Shown here one piece after another: positions 16,185 through 39,179 of a stretch of DNA of 52,027 bases. The translations under genes were made by a program, and so were the position numbers. The notes below the pieces were generated by a model. The model searched no databases. It had not been told where the DNA came from and saw only the letters and a program-made list of their open reading frames with translations. Source of the DNA: Chloroflexota bacterium (lineage in GTDB: Bacteria; Chloroflexota; Limnocylindria; P2-11E); the NCBI GenBank assembly GCA_028876375.1, contig JAGWSB010000006.1:1-52027 (forward strand), in the 5' to 3' direction. Numbering within the stretch: the stretch's first letter is position 1; every line of letters begins with the position of its first letter.

Positions 16185-18565
16185 GCGAGTTCAGCGTCGT
16201 CGGCAAGCGCCTCCCCAAGGTCAACGTCTGGGCCCACCTCACCGGCACCGCGCGATACGCGGACGACATCCAGCTCCCGCGGATGCTCTACGGCCGCCTG
16301 CTGCGTTCGCCGCACGCGCACGCCCGCATCAAGCGCATCGACACCTCGCGCGCGCTGGCGCGCGAGGGCGTCGTCGCCGTCTGCACCGGCGCGGACATGC
16401 CGGAGCGGATGGGGATCATGCCCTCCACTCAGGACGAGTACGCGCTGGCGCTGGACAAGGTCCGCTACGTCGGCGACCCGGTCGCGGCGGTCGCCGCGGT
16501 CGACGAGGACACCGCGTACGACGCGCTCTCGCTCATCGACGTCGAGTACGAGCCGCTCGAGCCGATCCTCACCGTCGAGGAGGCGCTCACGCGCGAGGAC
16601 GTGAAGATCCACGAGGACTCGGGCCGTCCGGCGAACGTGTTCAAGGACGTGCACCTCGAGTTCGGCGACGTCGAGGGCGGGTTCCAGCGCGCCCACCGGG
16701 TCTACGACAACTGGTACTTCTTCGAGGGGACGACGCACGCGCCGCTGGAGGCGCACTCCGCGGTCGCCTCGTACGACGGCGACGGCAAGCTGACGCTCTG
16801 GACGAGCACGCAGGTCCCCCACTACCTCCACCGCGAGCTCGAGAAGGTCCTCGGCGTACCGCGCTCGAAGATCCGCGTGGTCGCCACGCCCAACGGCGGC
16901 GGCTTCGGCGGCAAGAGCGACCCGTTCGCGCACGAATTCGCCGCGTGCCTCCTGTCGATGCGGACCAAGCGACCGGTGAAGTTCACCCTCGACCGCGAGG
17001 AGGTCTTCTACGCGCACCGCGGACGCCACCCGGTGCTCATGCACTTGAGGACGGGCGTCTCCGCCGAAGGCGACATCACCGCCGTCCACTTCGAGAGCTA
17101 CCTCGACGGCGGGGCGTACGCATCGTACGGGATCGCGACGACCTACTACACCGGCGCGCTCATGACCGTCACCTACAAGCTGCCGGCGTACAAGTTCGAC
17201 GGCGTTCGCGTGTACACGAACAAGCCGGCGTGCGGCCCCAAGCGCGGACACGGCACCACGCAGCCGCGCTTCGCCTTCGAGTGCCAGCTCGACCAGATCG
17301 CCGAGGACCTCGGCCTCGACCCCATCGCCTACCGCGAGCGGATCCTGCAGCCGGCCAACAGCCGGACGGTCAACGGCCTGCGCATCACCTCGATGGGGCT
17401 CGGGCAGTGCCTCGAGGAGGTCAAGCGCTCCACGCGCTTCCCGGAGAAGCACGGGCTGCTCCCGCGCGGCAAGGGCATCGGCGTCGCCGGCAGCGCCTAC
17501 ATCTCGGGCGCGGGGCTGCCCATCTACTGGAACGAGATGCCGCACTCCGGCGCGTCGGTGAAGATCGACCGCGGCGGCGGCGTCACCGTCTACTGCGGCA
17601 CGGCCGAGATCGGACAGGGCTCGGACAACGTCCTCGCGGTCGTCGCCGCGGAGCAGCTCGGCGTCCTCACCGACGACGTGCACGTCGTCTCCGGCGACAC
17701 CTCGCTCGCGCCGGTCGACCTCGGCTCGTACTCCAGCCGCGTCACGTTCATGGCCGGCAACGCCGTCCACGAGGCCGCCGGCAAGCTGCGCGCGCTCGTC
17801 GCCGAGGCCGCCGCGGCGAAGCTCGGGGTCCCGCCCGACCGGATCGGGCTCGCGCAGCGCCGCGTGTACGACCTGGCCGACCCGTCGAAGAGCCTGACCT
17901 TCGCCGAGGCCGCCGTGCTCGCCGAGGCTCGCAACGGCACGCTCGTCTCGGTCGGCTCGTACAAGCCGCCGAAGGGCATCTCCGGCGACTACAAGGGGTC
18001 GGGCGTCGGCCCGACGGCGGCGTACTCGTACCAGGCCGCGGTCGCGGAGGTGAGCGTCGACCTCGAGACGGGCATCGTCACCGTCGACCGCATCACCGAG
18101 GCGCACGACTGCGGACGCGCGCTCAACCCGCCCGCCGTCGAGGGTCAGATCGAGGGCGCCGCGTACATGGGCTACGGCGAGGCGCTCGCCGAGGAGCAGG
18201 TGTTCCGCGGCGGCCTGCACAAGAAGCCGTCGCTGCTCGAGTACAAGCTCCCGACGTCGATGGACACGCCCGAGATGAAGGCGATCATCGTCGAGACGAT
18301 CGACCCCGAGGGCCCCTTCGGCGCGAAGGAGGCGGGCGAGGGCCCGCTCAACCCGGTCATCCCGGCGATCGCGAACGCCGTCTACGACGCGATCGGCGTC
18401 CGCTTCGACGAGACGCCCATCACGCCGGCGAAGGTGCTCGACGCGCTGCAGAAGAGCAAGAGCCGGGTGGGTCCCGAGGGCCTCTCGTCGCAGCGCGACC
18501 CGAAGGCCGCGCTGCGGCGGCTCCACGCGACCACGGACGCGCGCGAGAAGAAGAAGGTGATGTGA
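16181..18565 (+). CDS. Molybdopterin-binding large subunit, xanthine dehydrogenase family; 4-hydroxybenzoyl-CoA reductase alpha-like (set 1)
   Basis: GTARYADDIQLPRMLYGRLLRSPHAHA, NGGGFGGKSDPFAHEFA, CGPKRGHGTTQPRFAFECQLD, PFGAKEAGEGPLNPVIPAIANAVYDA. Confidence 0.92.
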   Translation: MSEFSVVGKRLPKVNVWAHLTGTARYADDIQLPRMLYGRLLRSPHAHARIKRIDTSRALAREGVVAVCTGADMPERMGIMPSTQDEYALALDKVRYVGDPVAAVAAVDEDTAYDALSLIDVEYEPLEPILTVEEALTREDVKIHEDSGRPANVFKDVHLEFGDVEGGFQRAHRVYDNWYFFEGTTHAPLEAHSAVASYDGDGKLTLWTSTQVPHYLHRELEKVLGVPRSKIRVVATPNGGGFGGKSDPFAHEFAACLLSMRTKRPVKFTLDREEVFYAHRGRHPVLMHLRTGVSAEGDITAVHFESYLDGGAYASYGIATTYYTGALMTVTYKLPAYKFDGVRVYTNKPACGPKRGHGTTQPRFAFECQLDQIAEDLGLDPIAYRERILQPANSRTVNGLRITSMGLGQCLEEVKRSTRFPEKHGLLPRGKGIGVAGSAYISGAGLPIYWNEMPHSGASVKIDRGGGVTVYCGTAEIGQGSDNVLAVVAAEQLGVLTDDVHVVSGDTSLAPVDLGSYSSRVTFMAGNAVHEAAGKLRALVAEAAAAKLGVPPDRIGLAQRRVYDLADPSKSLTFAEAAVLAEARNGTLVSVGSYKPPKGISGDYKGSGVGPTAAYSYQAAVAEVSVDLETGIVTVDRITEAHDCGRALNPPAVEGQIEGAAYMGYGEALAEEQVFRGGLHKKPSLLEYKLPTSMDTPEMKAIIVETIDPEGPFGAKEAGEGPLNPVIPAIANAVYDAIGVRFDETPITPAKVLDALQKSKSRVGPEGLSSQRDPKAALRRLHATTDAREKKKVM

Positions 18566-18566
18566 G

Positions 18567-19607
18567 GTGTTGAGACTCCCGCGCTTCCGCATGGAGGTCC
18601 CGCGCACCCTCGACGAGGCCGCGCGCGTGCTGCGTGAGCTCGGCGCCGGTCAGCAGGATCCCGGAACGACGGGCATGCCCGGGATGAAGGTCCTGATGGT
18701 CGCCGGCGGCACCGACGTGTATCCGAACATGAAGCGCCGGCAGCTCACGCCCGAGGTCCTCGTGTCGCTCCGCCGTGCGCTCGCGCGTGACGTCCGCGCC
18801 GACGGTCCGTCGGCGGGCGTGACGATCGGCGCGGGCGCGACGCTCTCGAGCGTGAGCGCGCACCCGGTGGTCCGCTCGCGCTACGCCGCGCTCGCGATGG
18901 CCGCCGGCCTGGTGAGCACGCCGCAGCTGCGGAACATGGGGACGATCGGCGGGAACGTCTGCCTCGACACTCGCTGCAACTGGTACGACGAGTCGCAGTT
19001 CTGGCGGACCGCCGAGGGCTTCTGCATGAAGACGCACCCGAACGTGGTCTGCCGCGTCGCGACGTCGAGTCCGCGGTGCCTCGCCGTCGCCAGCGCCGAC
19101 ACCGTCCCCGCACTGCTCGCGCTCGGCGCGACGGTGCGGATCCAGAGCGCCCAGGGCGAGCGGAGCGTCGACCTCGGCGAGCTGTACCGCGAGGACGGCA
19201 TCCGCTACCTCACGATCGCGCGCGACGAGATCGTGAGCGCGGTCGAGCTCCCGCCCGCCGAGGGCTGGCGCAGCACGTACCTCAAGCTGCGCGACCGCGG
19301 CTCGTTCGACTTCCCCATCGTCGGCCTCGCGGCCGCCGTGCGCATGGACGGCGAACGCGTCGCCGGAGCGCGGGTGGCGCTCACGGCGGTGGCCTCGCGG
19401 CCGATCCTCGTCGACGCCGCGGCGGCGGCGCTGCGCGGGTCGCGCCTCGACGACGCGGCCATCGAGGCCGCGGCGGAGGCCGCGTTCAAGGCGGCGCGTC
19501 CGATGGACAACACCTCGGGGACGATCGCGCAGCGCAAGCGGACGGTGTCCGTGTTCGCGACCCGCGCGCTGCGGGAGCTGAGGGAGCGTCGAGCGGAGGC
19601 GGCCTGA
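18567..19607 (+). CDS. FAD-binding medium subunit, 4-hydroxybenzoyl-CoA reductase beta-like with extra Cys-rich ([4Fe-4S]-type) insert (set 1)
   Basis: VAGGTDVYPNMK, LRNMGTIGGNVCLDTRCNWYDESQFWRTAEGFCMKTHPNVVCRVATSSPRCLAVASADTVPALLALGA. Confidence 0.9.
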   Translation: MLRLPRFRMEVPRTLDEAARVLRELGAGQQDPGTTGMPGMKVLMVAGGTDVYPNMKRRQLTPEVLVSLRRALARDVRADGPSAGVTIGAGATLSSVSAHPVVRSRYAALAMAAGLVSTPQLRNMGTIGGNVCLDTRCNWYDESQFWRTAEGFCMKTHPNVVCRVATSSPRCLAVASADTVPALLALGATVRIQSAQGERSVDLGELYREDGIRYLTIARDEIVSAVELPPAEGWRSTYLKLRDRGSFDFPIVGLAAAVRMDGERVAGARVALTAVASRPILVDAAAAALRGSRLDDAAIEAAAEAAFKAARPMDNTSGTIAQRKRTVSVFATRALRELRERRAEAA

Positions 19608-20182
19608 TGGGATCCCTCGGCATCGTCCCGGCCGCCGGAGCGGCGGAGCGGTTCGGGAGCGCGAAGCTGCTCGCGGACGTCGGCGGCGCGCCGCTCCTCG
19701 AGCGCACCATCCGCGCGCTGCTCGACGGCGGCGTCGAGCGGGTCGTGGTGGTGCTCGGGCCCGAGGGCGCGCCCATGCGCGAGGGCATCCCCGTGCTCGG
19801 CGACGCGCGCGTCTCCGTCGGGGTGAACGAGCACCCCGAGAACGGGATGTTCTCCTCGATCCAGGCCGGACTGCGCGTCGGCGAGGGTGACCCCATCCTC
19901 GTCCTCCCGGGCGACATGCCGTACGTCGACAAGGCGACGGTCGCCTCGCTCCTCCGCTCGTACCGCGAGCGCGCGACCATCACCTCGCCGAAGTACCAGG
20001 GGAAGCGCGGCCATCCGGTCGTCATCCCCGGGAAGTACCGGGAGGAGATCCTGCGGGCCGAGCGCTCGGTGACGCTCCACGAGGTCATCAAGGCGCACCT
20101 GGCCGAGAGGGTGGACATGGACGTCTACGATCGTGGGATCGTGCGTGACGTCGACGTCCCGTCCGACCTGGAGGCGTCTTGA
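19607..20182 (+). CDS. MocA-like molybdenum cofactor nucleotidyltransferase (NTP transferase)
   Basis: LGIVPAAGAAERFGSAKLLADVGGAPLLERTIRALL..., LVLPGDMPYVDKATV; 1-nt overlap with set 1. Confidence 0.85.
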   Translation: MGSLGIVPAAGAAERFGSAKLLADVGGAPLLERTIRALLDGGVERVVVVLGPEGAPMREGIPVLGDARVSVGVNEHPENGMFSSIQAGLRVGEGDPILVLPGDMPYVDKATVASLLRSYRERATITSPKYQGKRGHPVVIPGKYREEILRAERSVTLHEVIKAHLAERVDMDVYDRGIVRDVDVPSDLEAS

Positions 20183-21330
20183 GAGAGATCTACCAGCGCA
20201 TGGCCGAGCTGGAGCGCGAGGGCCGCCGCTACGCGGTGTGCACCGTCGTGCGCACGGTCGGCTCCACGCCGCAGGTGGTGGGCGCGAAGATGATCGTCGA
20301 CGACCTCGGCCGGCTGACGGGCACGCTCGGCGGCGGATGCGTCGAGGGCGACGCGTTCGAGGAAGCGCGGACGGTCCTGCGGACCGGCGAGACCTCGCTG
20401 CGCGAGTACGAGCTGACCGAGGACCTGGCGTGGGACACGGGGCTCGTGTGCGGCGGGACGATGTGGATCTGGATCGAGCCCGGCGAGCGCGCGCTCACCG
20501 TCGACGGGCGCGACGTCCTCGGCGACCTCCTCGTGGCGTCGACGGGCGGGCATCCCGTGGCCCTCGCGACGCTGCTGCGGAAGAACGGGCGCGACATCGC
20601 GCCGGCGTCCCGCCTCGTCGTCGAGACCGACGGACGGACGGCAGGAGCGCTGGGCGACGCGACGCTCGACGCGAAAGCGCGCGAGGTCGCACTCGAGGCG
20701 CTGCGCCAGGGCACGGCGCGCGTCGTGCCGCTCGACGCGGGCAACGAGCTCCTGGTGGAGCCCGTCGTCGCGAAGCCGCGCCTGGTCATCGCGGGCGGCG
20801 GCCACGTCGGCCTCGCCATCGCTCGCATGGCGACGCTCCTCGAGTACGAGGTGACGGTCATCGACGACCGCCCCGACTTCGCGACGCGCGAGCGGTTCCC
20901 GGACGGCGTCGAGGTGATGCAGGCGGACATGGTCGAGGCGCTCGAGACGATGCCGATCGGCTGGAACACGTTCGTCGTCATCGCCACGCGCGGGCACAAG
21001 CTCGACTCGCACTGCCTGCGCGCGGCGGTGAAGACGCAGGCGCGCTACGTCGGGCTGCTCGGGAGCCGGCGCAAGACGATCCTCGTCGAGCGCATGCTGC
21101 GCGACGAGGGCGTGCCCGAGGAGCGGCTGCGCGACGTTCACGCGCCGATCGGGCTCGACCTCGGCGGCCGCACCCCGCCGGAGATCGCGCTCGCGATCAT
21201 GGCCGAGCTCTCGAAGGAGCGGTTCGGCGGCAGCGGCCGTCCGCTCCGCCTCTCCGGGGAGCTGTACGAGCGCGCCGTCGCGAAAGCGGCCGCGCCCGGA
21301 GGCAGCGAAGCCGTCCGCCGTGAAGACTGA
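20179..21330 (+). CDS. XdhC/CoxI family Mo-hydroxylase maturation protein
   Basis: CTVVRTVGSTPQVVGAKMIVDDLGRLTGTLGGGCVEG, LVIAGGGHVGLAIARMATLLEYEVTVIDDRPDFA, RYVGLLGSRRKT; TTG start. Confidence 0.93.
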   Translation: MREIYQRMAELEREGRRYAVCTVVRTVGSTPQVVGAKMIVDDLGRLTGTLGGGCVEGDAFEEARTVLRTGETSLREYELTEDLAWDTGLVCGGTMWIWIEPGERALTVDGRDVLGDLLVASTGGHPVALATLLRKNGRDIAPASRLVVETDGRTAGALGDATLDAKAREVALEALRQGTARVVPLDAGNELLVEPVVAKPRLVIAGGGHVGLAIARMATLLEYEVTVIDDRPDFATRERFPDGVEVMQADMVEALETMPIGWNTFVVIATRGHKLDSHCLRAAVKTQARYVGLLGSRRKTILVERMLRDEGVPEERLRDVHAPIGLDLGGRTPPEIALAIMAELSKERFGGSGRPLRLSGELYERAVAKAAAPGGSEAVRRED

Positions 21331-23585: not shown

Positions 23586-23606
23586 GCGCGGACGATATCC
23601 CTGGGC

Positions 23607-23831
23607 CTACTCCTCCCGGATCTCGTTCACGTCCTGCGGGTGCGGCGGACGGCGCTCGGGTCGGTCCGACGGCGCCGCCGGCGAGCCGCGGTCCCCGGGC
23701 GGGGCCCCCTGGTCGCGCTCGACCTCGCGCTCGCGCAGCATGCCCTCGGCGCGCTCGCCGCCCTTGCGCCCCGGCGGGGGCATCGGGATGGCTTCGTCGC
23801 TATGGCTGTCCTGCTCGTCCGGTCGGCCCAT
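23607..23831 (-). CDS. Small highly charged, probably disordered hypothetical protein
   Basis: 74-aa ORF MGRPDEQDSHSDEAIPMPPPGRKGGERAEGMLREREVERDQGAPPGDRGS...; no recognised family. Confidence 0.35.
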   Translation of the reverse strand: MGRPDEQDSHSDEAIPMPPPGRKGGERAEGMLREREVERDQGAPPGDRGSPAAPSDRPERRPPHPQDVNEIREE

Positions 23832-23889
23832 CACGCACCTCCCCGAACGACCGAGGGCAGGGCACGTGCCAGCGGTTATGGTGGGGAGG

Positions 23890-26867: not shown

Positions 26868-27683
26868 GTGCGGAACGTCGTTGTCAAGGGCGCCGGAGAC
26901 CTGGCCAGCGGCGTCGCCTACCGGCTGGCCAGAACGGGTTGGCCCGTGATCATGACGGAGCTCCCGCGTCCGCTGGTCGTCCGACGGACCGTCTCCTTCG
27001 CTGAGGCGGTCTTCGAGGGCATGGTCAGCGTGGAGGGGATGGTGGCCCGGCGGGTCGCCGCCCCGCTCGACGCCGCGTCCGTGACGGCGAACGGCGAGAT
27101 CGCCGTGGTCGTGGATCCCGCTGGCCGCACCATCGCCGAGCTGCGACCGGCGATCGTGGTCGACGCGATCATGGCGAAGCGCAACACGGGCACCTGCCTC
27201 GACGACGCTCCGGTGGTCATCGGGCTCGGGCCGGGCTTCCGTGCCCCGGTCGATGTGCACGCCGTCGTGGAGACGAATCGTGGCCATCGCCTCGGTCGTG
27301 TGATCTTCTCGGGAGAAGCCGAGGCGGACACAGGGGTCCCGGGCGTGGTGGATGGCCATGGCGCGGACCGCGTCCTGCGCGCGCCGATGGATGGCGTCTT
27401 CCGCGGCGCGCGCGAGATCGGCGACGCGGTCCGCGCCGGTGACGTGCTCGGCACGGTCGGCGGCGTTGCGCTCCATTGCCCGTTCGATGGCCGTTTGCGT
27501 GGGCTGATACACGACGGCATCCCGGTGCGAGCAGGGATGAAGGTCGGCGACGTCGACCCACGAGCGACGCGGGACCACTGCTTCACCATCTCGGACAAGG
27601 CGCTCGCGATCGGCGGCGGAGTCCTCGAAGCCGCGCTCTACCTCTTCGAGCGCGCGCCTTTGCCGCTCATAGCGGTCACCTGA
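26868..27683 (+). CDS. yqeB: YqeB/EF2563-family protein (selenium-dependent molybdenum hydroxylase system)
   Basis: VVVKGAGDLASGVAYRLARTGWPVIMTELPRPLVVRRTVSFAEAVFEG..., VDAIMAKRNTGT, VIGLGPGFRAPVDVHAVVETNRGHRLGRVI. Confidence 0.87.
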   Translation: MRNVVVKGAGDLASGVAYRLARTGWPVIMTELPRPLVVRRTVSFAEAVFEGMVSVEGMVARRVAAPLDAASVTANGEIAVVVDPAGRTIAELRPAIVVDAIMAKRNTGTCLDDAPVVIGLGPGFRAPVDVHAVVETNRGHRLGRVIFSGEAEADTGVPGVVDGHGADRVLRAPMDGVFRGAREIGDAVRAGDVLGTVGGVALHCPFDGRLRGLIHDGIPVRAGMKVGDVDPRATRDHCFTISDKALAIGGGVLEAALYLFERAPLPLIAVT

Positions 27684-28506
27684 CCTCGCGGCGGTCGACG
27701 CGCAGGATCGCCTCGCGTCGGCGCAGGGCGGCGATGACGACATGGCGCGCGCCTCCAGCGAGAAGCTCGCGCGACAGCACGTGCGCGTGTTCGATGCGCG
27801 CCGCGGTATCGGCCTTGTTGATCAGATAGACGATGCGCGCGCGCGGAGGGGTGCCCTTGCGGCCTCCCGCCGGATCGAGAAGGACGCGCGCGATCGTGCG
27901 TGGTCCCAGAACGTCCTCCCCCGCCGCGCGGGCGATCGCCCGCACGGGAGCGACGTGATGGGCCGCCGTGCGCAGCCGGTACCCGACGGCGTCGATCCCG
28001 ACGACGACGATGACGAGGCTCGCCGCCGCGGGAATGACGGGCTCGTGGCGACGAGGCGCCTTGAAGGGCTTCCCGCGCGCCCCGTCCGCCTCCACGAGGA
28101 CGTGGTCGACGGCGCGCAGGTGCGCCAACCGCGCCACCTCGGCGGCCACGACGCCGATCACCTTTCCGTCAGCGGCGACCGCGTGTCCGGCGACGGGAAC
28201 GTCGCCGTCGGCCAACGCCGCCCGAACGCCGTCGTGCAGCTCGCGCGCGGTGCGACCCAGCACGAGCCGGAGGCGGTGGCGATGCCCCGGCGGGCGGATG
28301 CGCGTCGTCGTCGTCACGACCACGGCCTTCCCGCGAGCCTGGAGCTCGCGCGCGAGGCGCAGCATGGCCGTCGTCTTCCCGCCCGCGCCGACCAGGGCCA
28401 CGACATCGCCGTCGCGTAGAGCGATGGCTTCCGCCACGCCCCGCTCGAGATGGGTGCGCCCCCGCCCCACGCCGGGGACCCTGTCATCGGACGCCGACGG
28501 GCGCAT
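27676..28506 (-). CDS. yqeC: YqeC-family protein (putative selenium cofactor biosynthesis protein)
   Basis: DGDVVALVGAGGKTTAMLRLARELQARGKAVVVTTTTRIRPP..., LVEADGARGKPFKAPRRHEPVIPAAASLVIVVVGIDAVG; start codon uncertain. Confidence 0.8.
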   Translation of the reverse strand: MRPSASDDRVPGVGRGRTHLERGVAEAIALRDGDVVALVGAGGKTTAMLRLARELQARGKAVVVTTTTRIRPPGHRHRLRLVLGRTARELHDGVRAALADGDVPVAGHAVAADGKVIGVVAAEVARLAHLRAVDHVLVEADGARGKPFKAPRRHEPVIPAAASLVIVVVGIDAVGYRLRTAAHHVAPVRAIARAAGEDVLGPRTIARVLLDPAGGRKGTPPRARIVYLINKADTAARIEHAHVLSRELLAGGARHVVIAALRRREAILRVDRREVR

Positions 28507-28575: not shown

Positions 28576-29277
28576 ATGACCGCTCATAGCGTGGGTCGCA
28601 AGGGGGAGGCCATCGAAGAGCCGAGCGTCATCGGCGACGACATCCTGCGCACGCTCGACGCGTGCGGCGACCCCGTCTTCGTCGTCGACGACCACTGGTC
28701 GATCGTGTCGTGGAACAAGGCCGCCGAGAGCGCCTTCCATCGACCCGCCGCGGATGTGCGGGGGCAGCCGTGCTACGAGGTCATCGCCGGCGCCGACGAC
28801 TCCGGCCGGCAGGTCTGCCGCCTCCACTGCGAGAAGTGGGCCCTCGCCCGGCGGGGAGCGCGGATCCACAACTTCGACATCCAGGCGCTCGGCGACCACG
28901 GCGTGTGGGCGAACGTCGCCATCCTCCCCATCAGCAACAGCGAGGGACGCCCGCTCGGGCTCGCTCACCTCCTCCGCAACGTCAACAGGGCCAAACGTCT
29001 CGAGAGGTTCCTGCAGGAGCTCACGACCGACGCCGAGGACGTGCTCGCCGCGCGCGCGACGAACGGCGTGACCCAGCGGGCGCCCGCGCGCCTCACGCTC
29101 CGCGAGGCGGAGGTGCTCGGCCTTCTCGCGCACGGCGCGGGCACTCAGGGCATCGCCGACCGCCTCGGCGTCAGCCGCCACACCGTCCACAACCACATCG
29201 CGGTCATCCTCAACAAGCTCGGCGTGCACAGTCGTGCCGGGGCCGTCGCATACGCGTTCGAGCACCATCTCGCGTAG
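28576..29277 (+). CDS. PAS domain-containing LuxR-type transcriptional regulator
   Basis: PAS DACGDPVFVVDDHWSIVSWNKAAESAFHRPAADVRGQPCYEVI; HTH LTLREAEVLGLLAHGAGTQGIADRLGVSRHTVHNHIAVILNKLGVHSRAGAVAYA. Confidence 0.9.
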   Translation: MTAHSVGRKGEAIEEPSVIGDDILRTLDACGDPVFVVDDHWSIVSWNKAAESAFHRPAADVRGQPCYEVIAGADDSGRQVCRLHCEKWALARRGARIHNFDIQALGDHGVWANVAILPISNSEGRPLGLAHLLRNVNRAKRLERFLQELTTDAEDVLAARATNGVTQRAPARLTLREAEVLGLLAHGAGTQGIADRLGVSRHTVHNHIAVILNKLGVHSRAGAVAYAFEHHLA

Positions 29278-30118: not shown

Positions 30119-32608
30119 ATGCCGAAGAAGATCTCGACCAAGCGCGTTCTCGAGCTCCTGGCCGACCCCGAGTTCCAGCTCATCGCCTCGGAGAGCCCGT
30201 GGGCGTACCAGGACGAGCTCGACGCGGTCAACGAGTACCTCATCGCGATCACGCCCAAGACGCCGGCCCATCTGCGCGCGGCGCAGCCTTCGCAGACGAG
30301 CATCGTCGGTCGCCGGCTGACGCGCCTCGAAGACCCCGCCCGCCTGACGGGGCAGGCCATCTTCTCGTCCGACGTCCAGCTCCCCGGGATGCTGCACGCC
30401 GCGATCCTCCGGTCACCGCACGCGCACGCGACGATCGACTCGATCGACACGTCCGCGGCCGAGGCGCTCGCCGGGGTGCGAGCGGTCATCACGTACAAGA
30501 ACGTGCCGCAGGTATCGCTCGGCGGGCCGCCGCCGCAGTTCATCCTCAACCAGGAGGTGCACTTCGCCGGCGAGGAGGTCGCCGTCGTCGCGGCGGACGA
30601 CATCCACACGGCGCGCGACGCCGTCGCGCTGATCAGGGTCCAGTACAAGGTCCTCCCTTCGATCACCGACCCTGTGGCCGCGCTCACAGCGGGTGCTCCG
30701 GACCTGCAGGGCGGCGGCAAGGGCAACAAGCTCGCTCAGTCGTATCCCCTCACGAAGCGCGGGAGCTTCGACAGCGCGTACGCGGCCGCGCCGTTCACGG
30801 TCGAGGGCCGCTACACGACGCAAACGCTCCAGCACGCGACGATGGAGCCCCGCAACGCCGTCGCCTTCTGGGAGGGGCCGGATCAACTCGTGGTCTACGC
30901 CGGCACCCAGTACATCATGGGGGTCCGCGCGGAGCTCGCGACGACCTTCAAGCTTCCGCGGAGCCACGTCCGCGTGATCGCGCCGTACGTCGGCGGGGGG
31001 TTCGGAGACAAGTCGAGCAGCAGCCGCCACGGCCGCTTCGCCGCGGTGCTCGCGCAGATGACGCAGCGACCGGTGAAGGTCGAGTACGACCGTCCCGGCA
31101 ACTTCAAGGCGGCGACGCATCGCTACGCGACCGTGGTCGATCTCAAGGCGGGCGCGGACCGATCGGGGAGGATCGCGGCGTACCGGGCGGACGCGATCAG
31201 CGACTCGGGCGCGTACAACGCCCCGTCCCTCACGGACGTCATGGTGTCGATCGCCCGCCTCTACCACGCCGACAACGCGTACTTCCAGCAGGCCGGAACG
31301 CTGACGAACCGCGGGCCGAGCGGTTTCCAGCGCTGCGTCGGCAATCCGCAGGGGACCTTCGCGCAAGAGGTCTTCATGGACGAGCTCGCCGAGAAGGCGG
31401 GCGTCGACCCGCTGGCGTTCCGTCTCATGAACGTCGAGACGAAGGTCAACCAGGACTCCGTCATGCCCGCCGACCTCGAGAACGCCTTCGGAGGCGGCGG
31501 CGAGGCCGCCGGATCGGTCCAGCGGAAGCTGCCGTGGGCGAGCTGCGGGATCGTCGACTGCCTGCAGCAGGGCGCCCGGTCGATCGGCTGGTCGCAGAAG
31601 TGGCACAAGCCCGCCACCGCGATCAAGGGCAACAAGGCCCACGGGATCGGGGTATCGGCGCACGCGTGCGCGCACGGCTCCATGACTATGCCGATGACCG
31701 CAATGATGAAGATCGACCAGGACGGCAGCCTCGACGTCATCCAGCCGACGACGGACATCGGCGGTGGCCAGTCGACGACGATGATGATGATCGGCGCCGA
31801 GACCGTGGGAGTGACGCTCGAGGACGCGCATCCCTCGTGGGGCGACTCGGCGTTCACCCCGGACTCGAGCGGAACGAACGGCAGCCGTCAGACGATCTCC
31901 GCCGGGAACGCGGTGCTCGAGGCCGGGCTCGACCTCAAGTGGCAGCTCCTTCAACAGGCGACGCGGCCGCTCCCGCCGAAGAACGCGCCGATGCTCCCCG
32001 GGAAGCCGGAGGACCTGGATACCCGTGACGGGTCCGTCTTCGTGAAGGCCGACCCGACGAAGAAGGTCGCTATCAAGGACGTCGTCGCCAGTACGGGCGG
32101 GCCGATGATGGGGCGCGGCGCCCACACCATCCCGCGCAACTACGGGATGTCCACCTTCGCCGCGGGATTCGCCGAGGTCGAGGTGGACCTCGACACCGGA
32201 GATGTGACGCTCCTTCGATACGTCGGCGCCAACGACGTCGGCAAGGCGGTCAATCCGCTGGGCGTCGAGCAGCAGATGGAGGGGGCCATCTCGATGAGCT
32301 TCGGAATGGCGCTGGGTGAGGAGATGAAGTTCGACCCCGAGCAGAAGTTCCCCGTCATGTGGAACTGGGAGAACTACGCGATGCCCACGGTCCTCGAACA
32401 TCCCCACATCGCCGACTTCCGGACGATCATCGTCGAACCCGGCGATGCGGTCGGCCCGTACGGCGCGAAGGGCGTCGGCGAGCCGCCCACGTCGCCTCCC
32501 GCCCCCGCGATAGCGAACGCCGTCTACAACGCGATCGGCGTCCGCATCCGCGATCTCCCGATCACCCGCGACAAGGTGCTCGCAGCGATCGCGCAGATGC
32601 AGAAGTGA
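30119..32608 (+). CDS. Molybdopterin-binding large subunit, xanthine dehydrogenase/aldehyde oxidase family (set 2), with N-terminal extension
   Basis: SIVGRRLTRLEDPARLTGQAIFSSDVQLPGMLHAAILRSPHAHA, VGGGFGDKSSSSRHGRFAAVLA, GPYGAKGVGEPPTSPPAPAIANAVYNAIGVRI. Confidence 0.93.
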   Translation: MPKKISTKRVLELLADPEFQLIASESPWAYQDELDAVNEYLIAITPKTPAHLRAAQPSQTSIVGRRLTRLEDPARLTGQAIFSSDVQLPGMLHAAILRSPHAHATIDSIDTSAAEALAGVRAVITYKNVPQVSLGGPPPQFILNQEVHFAGEEVAVVAADDIHTARDAVALIRVQYKVLPSITDPVAALTAGAPDLQGGGKGNKLAQSYPLTKRGSFDSAYAAAPFTVEGRYTTQTLQHATMEPRNAVAFWEGPDQLVVYAGTQYIMGVRAELATTFKLPRSHVRVIAPYVGGGFGDKSSSSRHGRFAAVLAQMTQRPVKVEYDRPGNFKAATHRYATVVDLKAGADRSGRIAAYRADAISDSGAYNAPSLTDVMVSIARLYHADNAYFQQAGTLTNRGPSGFQRCVGNPQGTFAQEVFMDELAEKAGVDPLAFRLMNVETKVNQDSVMPADLENAFGGGGEAAGSVQRKLPWASCGIVDCLQQGARSIGWSQKWHKPATAIKGNKAHGIGVSAHACAHGSMTMPMTAMMKIDQDGSLDVIQPTTDIGGGQSTTMMMIGAETVGVTLEDAHPSWGDSAFTPDSSGTNGSRQTISAGNAVLEAGLDLKWQLLQQATRPLPPKNAPMLPGKPEDLDTRDGSVFVKADPTKKVAIKDVVASTGGPMMGRGAHTIPRNYGMSTFAAGFAEVEVDLDTGDVTLLRYVGANDVGKAVNPLGVEQQMEGAISMSFGMALGEEMKFDPEQKFPVMWNWENYAMPTVLEHPHIADFRTIIVEPGDAVGPYGAKGVGEPPTSPPAPAIANAVYNAIGVRIRDLPITRDKVLAAIAQMQK

Positions 32609-32621
32609 GAGGGGGCCGACG

Positions 32622-33587
32622 ATGAAGGGCTTCGAGTACACCAGGCCGACCTCGGTCCAGGAAGCGGTGCAGCTCCTCTCGGCCCAGAACGCGCGCGCGC
32701 TCGGCGGCGGCACCGACCTCCTCGGGATCATGAAGGATGCGCTGCTGCCGACGGATCGCGTCGTCGACCTCAAGGGCATCCAGGGCCTCGACCACATCAA
32801 GGACGATTCCGGCACGCTCGCCATCGGCGCTCTCGCGCGCCTCAACGACATCGCGGCGTCGAGCTTGGTGGCGGGGAAGGCCCCCGCACTCGCGCAGGCC
32901 GCGAGCCTGGTGGCCTCGCCGCAGATCCGCAACATGGGCACGCTCGGCGGCAACCTCGCGCAGAAGGTGCGCTGCTGGTACTTCCGCGACGCCGACCGCA
33001 CCGACTGTTACAAGCGGAACGGCAGCTACTGCTACGCCGTCCTCGGAGCGAGCGACCTCCACGCCGTGTTCGATGGGGCTGCGTGCTTCGCCGTGCATCC
33101 TTCGGACACCGCGACCGCGCTCAGCGCGCTCGACGCGACCGTCGTCGTCGCCGGGCCGAAGGGCCAGCGGACGGTGCCCATCGCCTCGTTCTTCGTCGGC
33201 CCGGACACCGACTACCTGCGCGAGACCGTCCTCGCGCCCGACGAGATCATCACGGAGGTGCGTGTCCTGCTCGGCGCGCCGAGCGTCTTCCTCAAGGCCG
33301 CCCCGCGTCGCTCCATCGACTTCGCGCGGACCTCTGTGGGTGCGCAGGTCATCGGCACGAACGTCATCCAGACGGCGCGCATCGCCCTCGGCGCGGTCGC
33401 GCCGACCCCGCACCGCGCGACGAAGGCGGAGGCGTTCCTCGAAGGCAAGAGCCTGGCGCCGGACGTCATCGCGCAGGCTGCGGAGCTCGCAGCTGACGGC
33501 GCCAAGCCGCTGGCCTCCAACGCGTACAAGATCCCGCTGATCAAGGGCCTCGTGCGCCAGGCGCTGACGGCGCTTTCGGCCCGGTGA
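32622..33587 (+). CDS. FAD-binding medium subunit, PaoB/HcrB-like with Cys-rich insert (set 2)
   Basis: ALGGGTDLLGIMK, MGTLGGNLAQKVRCWYFRDADRTDCYKRNGSYCYAVLGASDLHAVFDGAACFAVHPSDTATALSALDA. Confidence 0.9.
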   Translation: MKGFEYTRPTSVQEAVQLLSAQNARALGGGTDLLGIMKDALLPTDRVVDLKGIQGLDHIKDDSGTLAIGALARLNDIAASSLVAGKAPALAQAASLVASPQIRNMGTLGGNLAQKVRCWYFRDADRTDCYKRNGSYCYAVLGASDLHAVFDGAACFAVHPSDTATALSALDATVVVAGPKGQRTVPIASFFVGPDTDYLRETVLAPDEIITEVRVLLGAPSVFLKAAPRRSIDFARTSVGAQVIGTNVIQTARIALGAVAPTPHRATKAEAFLEGKSLAPDVIAQAAELAADGAKPLASNAYKIPLIKGLVRQALTALSAR

Positions 33588-33597
33588 GGGAGGACAG

Positions 33598-34329
33598 ATG
33601 AGCGATCGGGACATCCCACGCTCCGGCGAGACCGCGCCGGAAGAGGCCCTTTCCCGGCGGCGCCTGGTCTTTGGCGGACTCGCCGCCGCGGGGGTCGTCG
33701 CCGCGACGGTGGGGACCTTCGGACGCGCCGCGACCGCGGTCGCGGCGCGGCAGCCCCTCTCCGACAAGGTCGTCGTGACCGACCCGACGCTGTGCGTCGG
33801 GTGCCTCGCGTGCGAGGTGAACTGCTCGACGTGGCACGCCTCCGTCGGGCGCTCGGGGGTCCCGCGGATCCGCATCCTGGCGACCCCCGAGGTGAAGCTG
33901 CAGACCCAGCTGGCGAGCTACCTTCCCGGGCGCACGGGCTTCTCGCCGTCGACTTGCCGGCAGTGCCCCACACCCTGGTGCGCGCCGAACTGCCCGACCG
34001 ATGCCCTGCGCGTCGACCCGGCGACGGGCGACCGCTACATCAGCGAGACCGAGTGCATCGACTGTGGCAAGTGCGAGGTCGATTGCCCCGTCGAGTGGAA
34101 GGGCACCCTCGCGCGGACCTCGCTGCCGATCGACAGCAAGCGCGTCATCCGCGATGCGACCAACAACGTGTACGTCAAGTGCGACCTCTGCATCGGCCGC
34201 CAGGGCGGACCGATCTGCGTGGAGCGCTGCCCGGTCAACGTGGCGATCCGCGCGGGGTACGTCAAGTCCGACCATCTCGCGCTCGACCTGAGGCCGAGCA
34301 CGCAAGAGCAGTGGGAGAAGCTGGTGTGA
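33598..34329 (+). CDS. Tat-signal-bearing 4Fe-4S dicluster-type ferredoxin (FdnH/NrfC/DmsB-like), four Cys motifs
   Basis: ALSRRRLVFGGLAAAGVVAATVGTF Tat-like leader; CVGCLACEVNC, CRQCPTPWCAPNC, CIDCGKCEVDC, CDLCIGRQGGPICVERC. Confidence 0.9.
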   Translation: MSDRDIPRSGETAPEEALSRRRLVFGGLAAAGVVAATVGTFGRAATAVAARQPLSDKVVVTDPTLCVGCLACEVNCSTWHASVGRSGVPRIRILATPEVKLQTQLASYLPGRTGFSPSTCRQCPTPWCAPNCPTDALRVDPATGDRYISETECIDCGKCEVDCPVEWKGTLARTSLPIDSKRVIRDATNNVYVKCDLCIGRQGGPICVERCPVNVAIRAGYVKSDHLALDLRPSTQEQWEKLV

Positions 34330-35321
34330 AGAAGACGAAAGCGTTCGCCCTCGCGAGCGACATCGTGCTGCTCCTCCTCACCATCGGAGGCGCCATTTGG
34401 CTCTTCGCGCTGGGATCGCCCGCGGTCGCGTGGCAGACGGACCGCTCGCTGCTGCCGCTCGTCGTCGACGGCTCTCGCCTCCTCATGCTCGTCACGGCGA
34501 TCGGTGTCGTCCTTGGTCTCATCGCCGCCGCCGTCGCACACCGCCGACCCGACCGCGTGGTGAACGGCGACGTCACCCGGTACGCCGTCGGCGATCGCCT
34601 GGCGCACTGGTCCATCGCGCTCGGCTTCGTCCTCGCGTTCGTGACGGGGGCATGGCTGCTGCGCCTCTTCGCGCTGGACACCACGGTCGACCTGCGCCCC
34701 ACCCTTTACGTCGTCCACTTCATCGGCGCCGGCCTCATCGTCCTCGCGGGGGCGGCCTTCGTCGCCTACAGCCGTGTGCGCGGCGAGGATGCGCTCTTCC
34801 CGCGCTGGCGCGACGTCGGGCCGGCGATCGCTCGCCTCTTCGGCTACCTCGGGACCTACGGCCAGCCGGGCGTCCTCGGTCTGCGCCTACGCATGGTCTG
34901 GCTGCAGGACGCGCTCGCGGCGATCGGCATCCGGCCGGCGAAGCGGGAGGGCAAGTTCCTCTCGGTCGAGAAGGTGCTCTCGTTCACGCCCCTCGCGATC
35001 CTCGCGGTCATCGTCGTCGCCACCGGGCTCATCAAGGCGGCGCACTACTTCTTCGCCGTGCCGCTCGAGGTGCTGAAGTGGTCCACGTGGCTGCACGACG
35101 TGTCCGTGTGGCTCACGCTCATCGTCGTCGGTCTGCACCTCGCGGCGATCTTCCTCGTGCCGCGCAACTGGCCGGGCATACGGTCGATGGTCACGGGCCG
35201 GATGCGCGTCGACCTCGTGGGCGAGGAGTTCCCCGCCTGGGCGGACGAGCTCAGGCAGCGCGAGATCCCCGCGCAGGGTCGGGAGGTCCCAGCGCACGGG
35301 ACCGCGGGAGGCGGCGACTAG
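34326..35321 (+). CDS. Cytochrome b561/formate dehydrogenase gamma-subunit-like membrane protein
   Basis: Multiple TM segments; DRLAHWSIALGFVLAFVTGAWLL, YVVHFIGAGLIVLAGAAFV, WLHDVSVWLTLIVVGLHLAAIFL with conserved-looking His; GTG start overlapping the ferredoxin stop. Confidence 0.85.
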   Translation: MKKTKAFALASDIVLLLLTIGGAIWLFALGSPAVAWQTDRSLLPLVVDGSRLLMLVTAIGVVLGLIAAAVAHRRPDRVVNGDVTRYAVGDRLAHWSIALGFVLAFVTGAWLLRLFALDTTVDLRPTLYVVHFIGAGLIVLAGAAFVAYSRVRGEDALFPRWRDVGPAIARLFGYLGTYGQPGVLGLRLRMVWLQDALAAIGIRPAKREGKFLSVEKVLSFTPLAILAVIVVATGLIKAAHYFFAVPLEVLKWSTWLHDVSVWLTLIVVGLHLAAIFLVPRNWPGIRSMVTGRMRVDLVGEEFPAWADELRQREIPAQGREVPAHGTAGGGD

Positions 35322-35911
35322 AGCGGCGGACGCGTCAACCGCGCGAGGTCGTCCGGGCTGTCGACGTCGTCGAGGCCGCCAAGGACCGGCGTGACCTCGA
35401 GGACGGCGACGTCGTCGCGCCGCCCGGCGAGCAGCTCGCGCGCGCCGACGTCGCCCGTGATGGTCGACAGCGCGGGCCACAGCTCGCGTCGCAGGAGCGT
35501 CGGAGGCGAGTGCCGGCCGTTCCAGGAGGAAATGACCGCCGCGGCGCCCGTCGCCTCCTGCCGGGCCACCAGTGCGTCCACCAAAGCCGGCGTGACGCGG
35601 GGCTGGTCGCCCAGAAGCACGACCGCCGCATCCGCGGCGGGGACGGCGGCGATCCCCGCGCGCAGCGACGTCGACTGACCCAGCGCGTGGTCCGCGTTGA
35701 CGACGACGCGCGCACGGCCGAGCCGTACGCTCGCTCGGACCTCGTCAGCGGCGTGTCCGAGGACGACCACGACCTCGTCGACCGCCGCGCCGTTGGCCGC
35801 GTCGAGCACGTGCTGCAGGAGCGGCAGCCCGTCGAGCGGGGCGAGCAGCTTGTGTCCGCCGAACCGGCTCGATGCGCCGGCCGCGAGAACGACGGCCGCG
35901 ACGCGGCTCAT
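35318..35911 (-). CDS. MocA-like molybdenum cofactor nucleotidyltransferase (NTP transferase)
   Basis: VAAVVLAAGASSRFGGHKLLAPLDGLPLLQHVLDAANG..., VVLLGDQPRVTPALVDAL. Confidence 0.9.
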   Translation of the reverse strand: MSRVAAVVLAAGASSRFGGHKLLAPLDGLPLLQHVLDAANGAAVDEVVVVLGHAADEVRASVRLGRARVVVNADHALGQSTSLRAGIAAVPAADAAVVLLGDQPRVTPALVDALVARQEATGAAAVISSWNGRHSPPTLLRRELWPALSTITGDVGARELLAGRRDDVAVLEVTPVLGGLDDVDSPDDLARLTRPPL

Positions 35912-36885
35912 GCCGCGGCGATGGCGGCGAGCGCGCGGCGGACGAGCTCCTTCGCGAGCGGGACCTTGTAGCCGTTCTTCGCGAGGGGCGCGGCGTCGGC
36001 GAGGAGCGCGTCCGCGGCGCGCCGCGCGAGCTCGTCGCTGAAGGGGTGTCCGTCGATCTCCGCCTCGGCGGCCTCGACGCGCCAGGGGACGGGCGCGACG
36101 CCGCCGAGCACGATGCGCGGGTTGCGCAGCTTCCCGTCACGGACGCGCGCCGCGGCCGCGACGGAGACGACGGCGAAGCTCCACGTCTTGCGCTCCATCG
36201 CCTTGAGGTACGTCCCGCGGCGCTGCAGTCCGGCCTCGGGGACGTGCACCTCGGTGAGGATCTCGCCGCGCTTGATGGTGTGCTCGTCGCGGCTGTGCAG
36301 CGCCGGGTCGGTGTAGAGGTCGGCGAGCGCGATCGAGCGCGTGCCGCGCGCGCCCACGAGCGTGACGCGCGCGTCGTGCGCGATGAGCGCGGGCGCGAGG
36401 TCGGAGGGAGCGACGCGGTTGCACCCGCGCGCCGTCCCGATGACGGCGTGGTGCTCGTTCTCGCCCTCCGACGCGAAGCAGCGCGTCCCGCCCTTGAGCC
36501 AGCACGGGATGGCCTCGTCGCGGAAGTACCAGCAGCGGTTGCGCTGCAGGAGGTTGCCGCCGACGGTGCCGGCGTTGCGCAGCTGGAGCGTCGCGGTGTC
36601 GGCGAGCGCGGCGCGCACGATGGGCAGGTGGCGCGCCAGCTGGTCGCTCGTCTCGAGGTCGACGAGCGGCGTCAGCGCGCCGATGCGCAGCCCCGCGCCC
36701 CGCTCACGCGACCAGCCTCGCAGCCCGTCGATGCCGGTGAGGTCGACGACGCGCGCGGGCGCCGCGATGCCGCCCTTCATCAGCCCGAGCAGGTCGGTGC
36801 CGCCCGCCATGGCCGCGGATCCGGCGCCGAGGAGGCGCGCCGCCTCGGCGACCGACGTCGCGCGGACGTAGGCGAAGGGCTTCAC
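35908..36885 (-). CDS. FAD-binding medium subunit, xanthine dehydrogenase family, with Cys-rich insert (set 3)
   Basis: MAGGTDLLGLMKGG, LRNAGTVGGNLLQRNRCWYFRDEAIPCWLKGGTRCFASEGENEHHAVIGTARGCNRVAPSDLAPALIAHDA. Confidence 0.92.
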   Translation of the reverse strand: MKPFAYVRATSVAEAARLLGAGSAAMAGGTDLLGLMKGGIAAPARVVDLTGIDGLRGWSRERGAGLRIGALTPLVDLETSDQLARHLPIVRAALADTATLQLRNAGTVGGNLLQRNRCWYFRDEAIPCWLKGGTRCFASEGENEHHAVIGTARGCNRVAPSDLAPALIAHDARVTLVGARGTRSIALADLYTDPALHSRDEHTIKRGEILTEVHVPEAGLQRRGTYLKAMERKTWSFAVVSVAAAARVRDGKLRNPRIVLGGVAPVPWRVEAAEAEIDGHPFSDELARRAADALLADAAPLAKNGYKVPLAKELVRRALAAIAAA

Positions 36886-39179
36886 GAGGCCGCCGCCAGC
36901 GCGTCGAGGACCCGCCGCCGCGTGAGCGGCAGGTGGCGGATGCGGACGCCGAGCGCGTTCGCGACGGCGTTCGCGACGGCCGCCGCGGCGGGGATGATCG
37001 GCGGCTCGCCGAGCCCCTTGGCACCCACGTTGTTCGCGGCGGTGTCGGGGACGTCGACGAAGCGCACGACGATGCGCGGGACGTCCCTCACGGTCGGCAC
37101 CTTGTACGTCTCGAGGCTGCGCGTCAGCACCCGGCCGGTCGGCTTGTCGACGACGCGCTCCTCCGAGAGCGCGAACCCGAGCGCCTGGATGACGCCGCCT
37201 TCGACCTGTGACCGCGCGGTGAGCGGGTTCACGATGCGACCCACGTCGTGCACCGCGACGACCCGCTCGACGAGCACGGCGCCCGTCGTCCGGTCGACCT
37301 CGACCTCGGCGAAGTGCGCGCCGAACGTCTTGAGCACGAGATCGTCGGGATTCGGACTACGCGACCCCCTGCCGATGACCGTGTAGTTGTCGAGGTCCTC
37401 GAAGACCTTCGCGATAGGGGTGCGCCCGCCGCGGCTCACGAGCGCGCCGCCTTCGACGCGCAGCTCGGAGCGCCCGACCTCGAGCACGCCCGCGGCCACG
37501 TCGAGGAGCTGCTCGCGCGCGTCCTTGGCCGCGAGCCGCACCGCCGGCGTGATCGACGCGACGGTGAGGGACCCGGCGGAGATGGGCGCGTACGTCGAGT
37601 CCGTGTCGCCGATCTCGACGCGCACGTCGCGCACGTCGATCCCGAGCTCCTCCGCGCACACCTGCGCGAGGACGGTGCGCGTGCCGGTGCCGATGTCCTG
37701 CGTCCCGATGCGCACGACGGCCGTGCCGTCGGGGTTGAGGTGCACCGTCGCGTAGGCCGGGGGCGTCCCGCCGCCGCTCCACAGCTGCGACGCCATCCCG
37801 AGACCGCGGCGCAGTCCGGGCGCCGAGCCGCGCAGCCCGCCGCGCTTGCGGCGCGACCACCCGATCTCCGCGGCGCCGATGTCGTAGCAGTCCACGAGAC
37901 GCTTGAGCGAGTAGCGCATCTTGCTGACCGGATCGATGGCGCCCTCGGCGTGGTGCCGGCGCAGCGCGAGCGGGTCGACGCCCATGCCGTCGGCGAGCTC
38001 GTCGATGGCCGACTCGAGCGCGAACGTGCCCTCCACGTACCCGGGCGCGCGGAAGGCGGCGAGCGATCCGGTGTTGGTCACGACGCGGTGCGCGTGGGCG
38101 AGGATGCTCGGTACGTCGTACAGCCCCTTCGTCGGTCCGGTCGGGTCGGCGACCCAGCGCGCCTGGCCGACGTTCGACCACGAATCGTGCGCGATCGCCG
38201 TGATGCGCCCGTCCTTCCCGGCGATCTTCACGCGCTGGAGCGTCGCGGATCGGTTCCCCGCCGCGACGTTCTCCTCGCGGCGGTCGAGGACGCAGCGCAC
38301 CGGCGCGCCGAGCTCGCGCGCGAAGAGCGCCGCGATGACGGTGTACTTGCCGATCCCGCCCTTCGAGCCGAAGCCGCCGCCCATGTGATCGCACAGCACG
38401 CGGATCTTCCCCAGCGGCAGGTGCAGCGCGGCGTGCAGCCCCTGGCGCACGCCGAAGACGTGCTGCGTCGACTCGTACACGGTCAGCTGATCGCCGTCCC
38501 AGGCCGCGACCGCGCCATGCGTCTCGAGGCAGTTGTGGAGCTGCGTCGACGTGCGATACGTCCCCTCGACGACGACGTCCGCGGACGCGAAGGCCTTCTT
38601 CACGTCGCCGCGCTCGTGGCGGTCGGCGTCGTGGACGTTCCCCTTCTCGTCGATGCGCGGCGCTGCGTCGTCGATCGCCTCCTCCAGGTCGACGACGTGG
38701 GGCAGGACCTCGTAGTCGACGACGATGAGGTCGAGCGCGGCATCCGCGGTCTCCTCGGTGTCGGCCGCGACGGCGGCGACCTCGTCGCCGACGAAGCGGA
38801 CCTCCTCGCGGAAGATCGTCTCCTCGCCGCGGAACGCGGTCTTCGGCGTGTTGAAGCGGTGGAGCACGGCGCGCACGCCGGGGAGGGCGAGCGCCCGGCT
38901 GGGGTCGACGTGCCGCACCCGGGCCCGCGGGTGCGGGCTGCGGAGGATGCGCGCGTGGAGCATCCCGGGGAGCCGGACGTCGTGCGTGTATCGGGCCCGC
39001 CCCGTCACCTTGGCCGCGCCCTCGACGCGCCGGTGCGCGCGGCCGACGATCCCGAGCTGGGCGCCCTCCGGCCACGCTTCGGCGTCCTCGTCCTGCACCA
39101 GGGCGAGCTGCTCCATGACCTCACCCTCGAACTCATTGCGCGTGCGGACGACGCGCGTCCTGCCTCGCTCGTCCTTCAT
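36882..39179 (-). CDS. Molybdopterin-binding large subunit, xanthine dehydrogenase family (set 3)
   Basis: GRARYTHDVRLPGMLHARILRSPHPRA, MGGGFGSKGGIGKYTVIAALFAREL, FRAPGYVEGTFALESAIDELA, NVGAKGLGEPPIIPAAAAVANAVANALGVRI. Confidence 0.93.
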   Translation of the reverse strand: MKDERGRTRVVRTRNEFEGEVMEQLALVQDEDAEAWPEGAQLGIVGRAHRRVEGAAKVTGRARYTHDVRLPGMLHARILRSPHPRARVRHVDPSRALALPGVRAVLHRFNTPKTAFRGEETIFREEVRFVGDEVAAVAADTEETADAALDLIVVDYEVLPHVVDLEEAIDDAAPRIDEKGNVHDADRHERGDVKKAFASADVVVEGTYRTSTQLHNCLETHGAVAAWDGDQLTVYESTQHVFGVRQGLHAALHLPLGKIRVLCDHMGGGFGSKGGIGKYTVIAALFARELGAPVRCVLDRREENVAAGNRSATLQRVKIAGKDGRITAIAHDSWSNVGQARWVADPTGPTKGLYDVPSILAHAHRVVTNTGSLAAFRAPGYVEGTFALESAIDELADGMGVDPLALRRHHAEGAIDPVSKMRYSLKRLVDCYDIGAAEIGWSRRKRGGLRGSAPGLRRGLGMASQLWSGGGTPPAYATVHLNPDGTAVVRIGTQDIGTGTRTVLAQVCAEELGIDVRDVRVEIGDTDSTYAPISAGSLTVASITPAVRLAAKDAREQLLDVAAGVLEVGRSELRVEGGALVSRGGRTPIAKVFEDLDNYTVIGRGSRSPNPDDLVLKTFGAHFAEVEVDRTTGAVLVERVVAVHDVGRIVNPLTARSQVEGGVIQALGFALSEERVVDKPTGRVLTRSLETYKVPTVRDVPRIVVRFVDVPDTAANNVGAKGLGEPPIIPAAAAVANAVANALGVRIRHLPLTRRRVLDALAAAS

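What the first reader, a model, noticed from the sequence alone, without database searches (positions are those of the whole stretch)
26868..28506. YqeB and YqeC markers of selenium-dependent Mo hydroxylases beside three Mo hydroxylase gene sets
A YqeB/EF2563-like and a YqeC-like gene lie between Mo-hydroxylase sets. These families are established bioinformatic markers for maturation of hydroxylases with a labile selenium atom. Two MocA-like genes (19607 and 35318) and XdhC (20179) complete the maturation kit in the window. Inference: at least one of the three hydroxylases, most likely the neighbouring Tat-exported one, may be selenium-dependent, and an exported seleno-Mo hydroxylase would be unusual.
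Basis: partly seen in the sequence, partly recalled or inferred. Interest (0 to 1): 0.72.

Follow-up and report, generated by a model that had tools for sequence, protein, structure and literature searches.

The report
Candidate exported selenium-dependent molybdenum hydroxylase module
An uncultured Chloroflexota bacterium carries a compact gene module that pairs two selenium-cofactor maturation markers (yqeB, yqeC) with one particular exported, membrane-linked molybdenum enzyme, which makes that enzyme a strong but biochemically unproven candidate for a selenium-dependent molybdenum hydroxylase that works outside the cytoplasm.

Summary
yqeB (26868-27683 +) and yqeC (27676-28506 -) score well above curated cut-offs; three complete Mo hydroxylase sets (A, B, C), two MocA genes and an XdhC lie in the window. 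Comparative genomics singles out the client. In a 151-genome class sample, orthologues of the Tat-exported set B occur only in the three family members that have yqeB. Sets A and C, and the genome's three other hydroxylases, have orthologues in yqeB-less relatives. yqeB, yqeC, a PAS-LuxR gene, the five-gene B operon and a second mocA keep the same order in all three genomes and are absent between A and C in relatives. Elsewhere in the class yqeB-yqeC follow a hydroxylase and XdhC, with selD next in two genomes. Best reading: B is a selenium-dependent hydroxylase assembled in the cytoplasm, exported by Tat, passing electrons through a Tat-exported 4x[4Fe-4S] protein and a cytochrome b to quinone. 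Selenium content, substrate and electron route are inferred, not shown. No Tat-exported hydroxylase was found beside 78 other yqeB genes.

The parts
26868..27683 (+). yqeB, selenium-dependent Mo hydroxylase maturation protein (TIGR03309)
   Evidence: 354.5 bits vs cut-off 220; AlphaFold model pLDDT 90.9, N-terminal Rossmann-like part and C-terminal biotinyl/lipoyl-like barrel; one nearly invariant Cys, C238
27676..28506 (-). yqeC (TIGR03172), P-loop NTPase-like, convergent with yqeB
   Evidence: 183 bits vs cut-off 73; invariant GxGGKT Walker A and EADG; best folds SRP/FtsY/MeaB-class GTPases
28576..29277 (+). PAS-LuxR regulator of the module
   Evidence: PAS and GerE domains; present at the same place in L024 and L025
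29465..30109 (+). set B small subunit, [2Fe-2S], with Tat signal STKRFSRRAFLK, GTG start after GGGAGGGA
   Evidence: Fer2_2 domain; NCBIfam PaoA/4-HBCR gamma-like; Tat motif conserved in G091 and G278
30119..32608 (+). set B Mo-binding subunit, no signal of its own
   Evidence: Ald_Xan_dh_C, MoCoBD_1, MoCoBD_2; orthologues only in yqeB+ genomes
32622..33587 (+). set B FAD-binding subunit
   Evidence: FAD_binding_5, CO_deh_flav_C
33598..34329 (+). set B polyferredoxin, Tat signal SRRRLVFGG, 16 Cys (4 x [4Fe-4S])
   Evidence: DmsB/HydN-like NCBIfam hits; Cys positions; Tat conserved
34326..35321 (+). set B cytochrome b561/FDH-gamma-like membrane subunit
   Evidence: Ni_hydr_CYTB 52 bits, TIGR01583 41 bits, six hydrophobic segments
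35318..35911 (-). second mocA (Mo cofactor cytidylyltransferase-like), part of the B module
   Evidence: TIGR03310 137 bits, below cut-off 186; conserved only in the three B+ genomes
15687..19607 (+). set A, 4-hydroxybenzoyl-CoA reductase-like hydroxylase: [2Fe-2S] 15687-16184, Mo 16181-18565, FAD 18567-19607; not yqeB-linked
   Evidence: 887 bits to TIGR03194, cut-off 995; orthologues in yqeB-less relatives
19604..20182 (+). first mocA, with set A
   Evidence: NTP_transf_3; TIGR03310 116 bits; kept in yqeB-less relatives
20179..21330 (+). XdhC-type maturation factor, with set A
   Evidence: XdhC_C and XdhC_CoxI; NF045664 274 bits; kept in G332 and G163
35908..39673 (-). set C hydroxylase: FAD 35908-36885, Mo 36882-39179, [2Fe-2S] 39176-39673; not yqeB-linked
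   Evidence: orthologues in yqeB-less relatives

Best explanation
yqeB, yqeC, the PAS-LuxR gene, the five-gene B operon and the second mocA form one functional module. YqeB (with YqeC, a MocA-made CTP-type cofactor and the shared XdhC) uses SelD-activated selenium to place a terminal selenium ligand on the molybdenum of the set B hydroxylase while the enzyme is still in the cytoplasm. The folded B_g/B_a/B_b complex is then carried across the membrane by the Tat signal on the [2Fe-2S] subunit, as in PaoABC, where the Mo subunit has no signal of its own. Outside, electrons from substrate hydroxylation pass over [2Fe-2S] and FAD to the Tat-exported 4x[4Fe-4S] protein and the FDH-gamma-like cytochrome b, and so to quinone. 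Shown: the genes, the module's conservation, the exclusive link of yqeB with B, the Tat motifs and the cofactor-binding domains. Inferred: selenium in B, export, electron route, order of steps. Unknown: substrate.
For: yqeB and yqeC confirmed; published markers, TIGR03309 only in selD+ genomes (PMC2276186); yqeB needed for Se-dependent purine use in C. difficile (PMC11448449). In 28 sampled family genomes B (>=75% id) is in 3 of 3 yqeB+ and 0 of 25 yqeB- (Fisher p 3e-4, ignoring shared ancestry). A is in 20 and C in 21 yqeB-less family genomes. All six hydroxylases of the genome were checked: A, C, D, E, F have orthologues in yqeB-less relatives, B has none. Same gene order in L024 and L025. 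Relatives G317, G332, G163 have A and C but no yqeB, yqeC, LuxR or second mocA. In family f4 of the same class yqeB-yqeC follow a hydroxylase and XdhC, with selD next in two genomes. yqeB+ genomes of the class are selD+ 7 of 7, against 68 of 151 overall. Tat motifs conserved in three genomes.
Against: No sequence signature separates Mo=Se from Mo=S enzymes, and B is not close to any curated Se-dependent family (TIGR03311 308 bits vs cut-off 830; TIGR03313 257 vs 1102). The sister set D is equally exported and lacks yqeB, so B could be an ordinary Mo=S enzyme. The co-occurrence may be a single acquisition event in one genus. The assembly is about 90% complete, so a missing hydroxylase could be the real client. 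yqeC was dispensable in C. difficile.
Confidence: 0.6

Rival explanations
1. YqeB/YqeC serve another hydroxylase of the same genome (set A, set C, one outside the window, or one missing from the assembly), and the neighbourhood with B is incidental.
For: In other species yqeB sits beside or away from varied hydroxylases (in C. difficile not beside yqeC or selD). The assembly is about 90% complete.
Against: All five other hydroxylases found have orthologues in relatives without yqeB. B, second mocA, LuxR, yqeC and yqeB stay together in three genomes down to 49-75% identity.
Confidence: 0.17
2. The YqeB/YqeC pair here acts without selenium (for example as a sulfuration or cofactor-loading chaperone), so B is an ordinary exported Mo=S hydroxylase with a dedicated maturation pair.
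For: YqeB's biochemical activity is not known. Single yqeB or yqeC genes may have Se-unrelated roles (PMC5029168). The fold search shows only a Rossmann-like part plus a biotinyl-like barrel with no full-length solved relative.
Against: yqeB and yqeC occur together here, which PMC5029168 takes as the signature of the Se-cofactor trait. yqeB is only in selD+ genomes of the class, and beside selD in two. The sister exported set D needs no yqeB, so export alone does not explain the pair.
Confidence: 0.16
3. B is selenium-dependent but stays in the cytoplasm or is not membrane-linked (the Tat motif on B_g is vestigial, and the polyferredoxin and cytochrome b serve something else).
For: The h-region of the B_g signal is short and only moderately hydrophobic (a strict scan flagged B_Fd but not B_g); B_a and B_b have no signal.
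Against: SRR[AT]FLK is conserved in all three B_g proteins and a separate Tat motif in B_Fd. Sister set D has a clear Tat signal on its small subunit too.
Confidence: 0.06

Closest known systems
Selenium-dependent molybdenum hydroxylases with yqeB/yqeC (E. faecalis EF2570, C. difficile purine enzymes; E. barkeri nicotinate dehydrogenase as the solved Se enzyme)
   Same: xanthine-oxidase-family enzyme encoded beside yqeB, yqeC and a mocA, in a selD+ genome
   Different: B is predicted to be exported by Tat and has a polyferredoxin and cytochrome b partner; it is not close in sequence to TIGR03311/TIGR03313; no selenium measured
E. coli PaoABC (YagTSR) periplasmic aldehyde oxidoreductase
   Same: three subunits, Tat signal on the [2Fe-2S] subunit, Mo subunit without signal; B_a 281 bits to PaoC
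   Different: PaoABC has no yqeB/yqeC and no polyferredoxin or cytochrome b subunit (own knowledge)
Set D of the same Chloroflexota family (G000:C6, L147; L141; L143)
   Same: sister clade of B (SH-aLRT 97), Tat-exported, with similar polyferredoxin and cytochrome b genes nearby, same RCV active-site loop
   Different: no yqeB/yqeC; about 36% identical; widespread in yqeB-less relatives
Respiratory formate dehydrogenase-type membrane module (FdnHI)
   Same: 4x[4Fe-4S] subunit and b-type cytochrome that would hand electrons to quinone
   Different: attached here to a xanthine-oxidase-family enzyme; similarity weak

Membership tests
YqeB (TIGR03309) | score over curated cut-off over full length | tested here: met
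   354.5 bits vs 220, profile 1-255 of 256
YqeC (TIGR03172) | score over curated cut-off over full length | tested here: met
   183 bits vs 73, profile 1-205 of 209
Selenium-cofactor trait (selD + yqeB + yqeC) | all three genes present in the genome | tested here: met
Selenium-cofactor trait (selD + yqeB + yqeC) | a Mo hydroxylase whose distribution follows yqeB | tested here: met
   set B only; A and C do not
Selenium-dependent Mo hydroxylase (enzyme) | labile, cyanide-sensitive selenium ligand at molybdenum | not testable with these tools
   needs ICP-MS, 75Se or a structure
Curated Se-dependent xanthine dehydrogenase TIGR03311 / TIGR03313 | score over cut-off | tested here: not met
   B_a 308 vs 830 and 257 vs 1102 bits; A and C also far below
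Xanthine-oxidase family of molybdoenzymes | Mo, [2Fe-2S] and FAD subunits with family domains | tested here: met
Tat-exported protein | twin-arginine motif plus hydrophobic region near the N-terminus | tested here: met
   B_g SRRAFLK and B_Fd SRRRLVFGG, conserved in three genomes
Tat-exported protein | actual export | not testable with these tools
   needs fractionation or a reporter
4-Hydroxybenzoyl-CoA reductase (set A) | score over TIGR03194 cut-off | tested here: not met
   887 vs 994.6 bits

The most novel reading that the evidence does not exclude
Set B is an exported, respiratory, quinone-linked selenium-dependent molybdenum hydroxylase, that is, a Mo=Se cofactor that is made in the cytoplasm and works outside it.
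Probability: 0.54. Interest if true: 0.74.

Novelty: new variant of a known kind. Interest (0 to 1): 0.58.

Why it matters
The selenium-dependent Mo hydroxylases that have been characterised come mainly from clostridia and act inside the cell (own knowledge for location). If B carries selenium, a labile Mo=Se ligand would have to survive Tat export and work in a respiratory chain of an uncultured Chloroflexota. The natural comparison of B with its sister D (same architecture, same organism, no yqeB) would let the open questions of what YqeB does, and what selenium gains the enzyme, be tested with matched enzymes. The class-wide profile also gives a clean way to assign yqeB to its client enzyme.

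Tried and rejected
Active-site Cys (QRCVGNPQG) of B_a, at the place of the CODH copper-binding Cys: it looked like a possible selenium marker, but the yqeB-less sister set D has the same RCV loop, and Se-containing nicotinate dehydrogenase has FRGFG there, so it marks the B/D clade and not selenium. selD presence as proof: rejected, because selA, selB, tRNA-Sec and a Sec-SelD explain it equally well. Fold search of YqeB and YqeC: partial folds only (TM 0.2-0.45), no mechanism. A protein search of plasmids gave only 35% relatives of B_a. Literature searches found no exported selenium-dependent hydroxylase, but the library is open-access only. A phylum-wide search for B was given up in favour of the census of all hydroxylases, so B outside the class was not looked for directly.

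Full report
What is there. The window is contig C111 of a 2.6 Mb, 134-contig assembly, 89.8% complete, from a Chloroflexota lineage by its nearest named relatives, L024 (DBS2-1.bin91) and L025 (NC_groundwater_339). yqeB and yqeC are both real, full length and over their curated cut-offs, and lie tail to tail at 26868-27683 (+) and 27676-28506 (-). Around them are three three-subunit hydroxylases of the xanthine-oxidase family: set A (4-hydroxybenzoyl-CoA reductase-like, 654 bits to PDB 1rm6, but below the curated cut-off for that enzyme), set B, and set C (nearest PaoC).

Set B. The operon runs B_g ([2Fe-2S], GTG start at 29465 after GGGAGGGA), B_a (Mo), B_b (FAD), B_Fd (16 cysteines, enough for four [4Fe-4S] clusters) and B_cyt (cytochrome b561/formate dehydrogenase gamma-like, six hydrophobic segments). 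B_g carries SRRAFLK and B_Fd SRRRLVFGG; both Tat motifs are conserved in G091 and G278. B_a and B_b have no signal, so export would be by hitch-hiking on B_g, as known for PaoABC (own knowledge).

Selenium machinery. The genome has selA (524 bits), selB (345 bits) and tRNA-Sec (75.5 bits). selD is present with an in-frame TGA at the catalytic position...CAGUGAKLG....

Which hydroxylase is the client. This was the open point, and a class-wide profile answers it. In 151 genomes of the class, yqeB occurs in seven, three of them in the window's family (G000, G091, G278). Orthologues of B_a (77% identity or more in that search) occur in exactly those three and nowhere else. Orthologues of A_a (76-95%) and C_a (56-90%) occur in 20 and 21 family genomes without yqeB. 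A census of all Mo hydroxylases in the genome found six; the three outside the window, D (C6), E (C72) and F (C26), also have orthologues at 52-71% identity in yqeB-less relatives. By elimination B is the only hydroxylase whose presence follows yqeB. The three B+ genomes are in one genus, so this is probably one acquisition, and the Fisher p value of 3e-4 overstates the independence.

The module. Order and orientation yqeB(+) yqeC(-) LuxR(+) B_g B_a B_b B_Fd B_cyt(+) mocA(-) are the same in the window, L024 and L025, although YqeC and LuxR have fallen to 49-55% identity in L025. The second mocA is absent near C in G317, G332 and G163 and present in all three B+ genomes, so it belongs to the module and not to set C. 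In relatives the stretch between A and C holds no yqeB, yqeC or B; in G332 and G163 it holds set D.

Yardstick in the same class. In family f4, yqeB and yqeC stand in a row after a fused [2Fe-2S]/Mo hydroxylase (709 bits to TIGR03313, below its cut-off) and XdhC, with selD next in two genomes. This ties yqeB to selD and to hydroxylases inside the same class. All seven yqeB+ genomes are selD+, against 68 of 151 overall.

Is export unusual. D is the sister clade of B (SH-aLRT 97) and is Tat-exported with similar redox partners, so exported hydroxylases are ordinary in this family. What is not ordinary is export together with yqeB/yqeC: among the other 78 yqeB loci fetched, none of the hydroxylase small subunits found has a Tat motif. 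That search was limited to about 10 kb each side and to recognisable relatives of the window's genes, and many loci were cut short by contig ends.

Mechanism. YqeB models well (pLDDT 90.9) as a Rossmann-like part and a C-terminal biotinyl/lipoyl-like barrel with no full-length solved relative, in line with the AccB likeness noted in PMC11448449. Of its cysteines only C238 (DHCFTISDK) is conserved, in 80 of 82 sequences, which makes it a candidate selenium carrier; this is an inference. YqeC has an invariant Walker A motif and its best folds are SRP/FtsY and MeaB GTPases, so it may be a nucleotide-driven loading factor. In C. difficile yqeB was needed and yqeC was not.

Verdict. Selenium in B is not shown. 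I put the best explanation at about 0.6 and the full novel reading (selenium, exported, respiratory) at 0.54.

Noticed in passing
L023:9150-10240 (-), G000:C28:88193-89119: SelD of this genome has an in-frame TGA at the catalytic position (CAGUGAKLG), so it looks like a Sec-containing SelD; an in-frame TGA is reported in selD of most family members.
   Followed up: yes
window 30119-32608 (loop QRCVGNPQG); set D proteins in L107-L114, L141, L147 (loop YRCVSHPNG): The exported B/D clade has a Cys directly after the conserved Arg of the active-site loop, in register with the copper-binding Cys of CO dehydrogenase. It is shared by yqeB+ and yqeB- enzymes and is unexplained.
   Followed up: partly
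L209, L210, L211, L212: In family f4 of the class yqeB-yqeC follow a [2Fe-2S]/Mo hydroxylase and XdhC, with selD next in two genomes; a compact, probably classical selenium-dependent hydroxylase operon.
   Followed up: partly
L028 and L041: Two Archaeoglobi MAGs have yqeB with XdhC, mocA and a hydroxylase that is the sister of set A (4-hydroxybenzoyl-CoA reductase-like, about 41% identical).
   Followed up: no
window 23566-25092: ArsA/GET3-type ATPase with an HSP20-like domain between set A and the yqeB module.
   Followed up: no
window 27579-27581 (YqeB C238): The only conserved cysteine of YqeB, in 80 of 82 sequences, in the motif DHCFTISDK; a testable candidate for a selenium-carrying residue.
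   Followed up: partly
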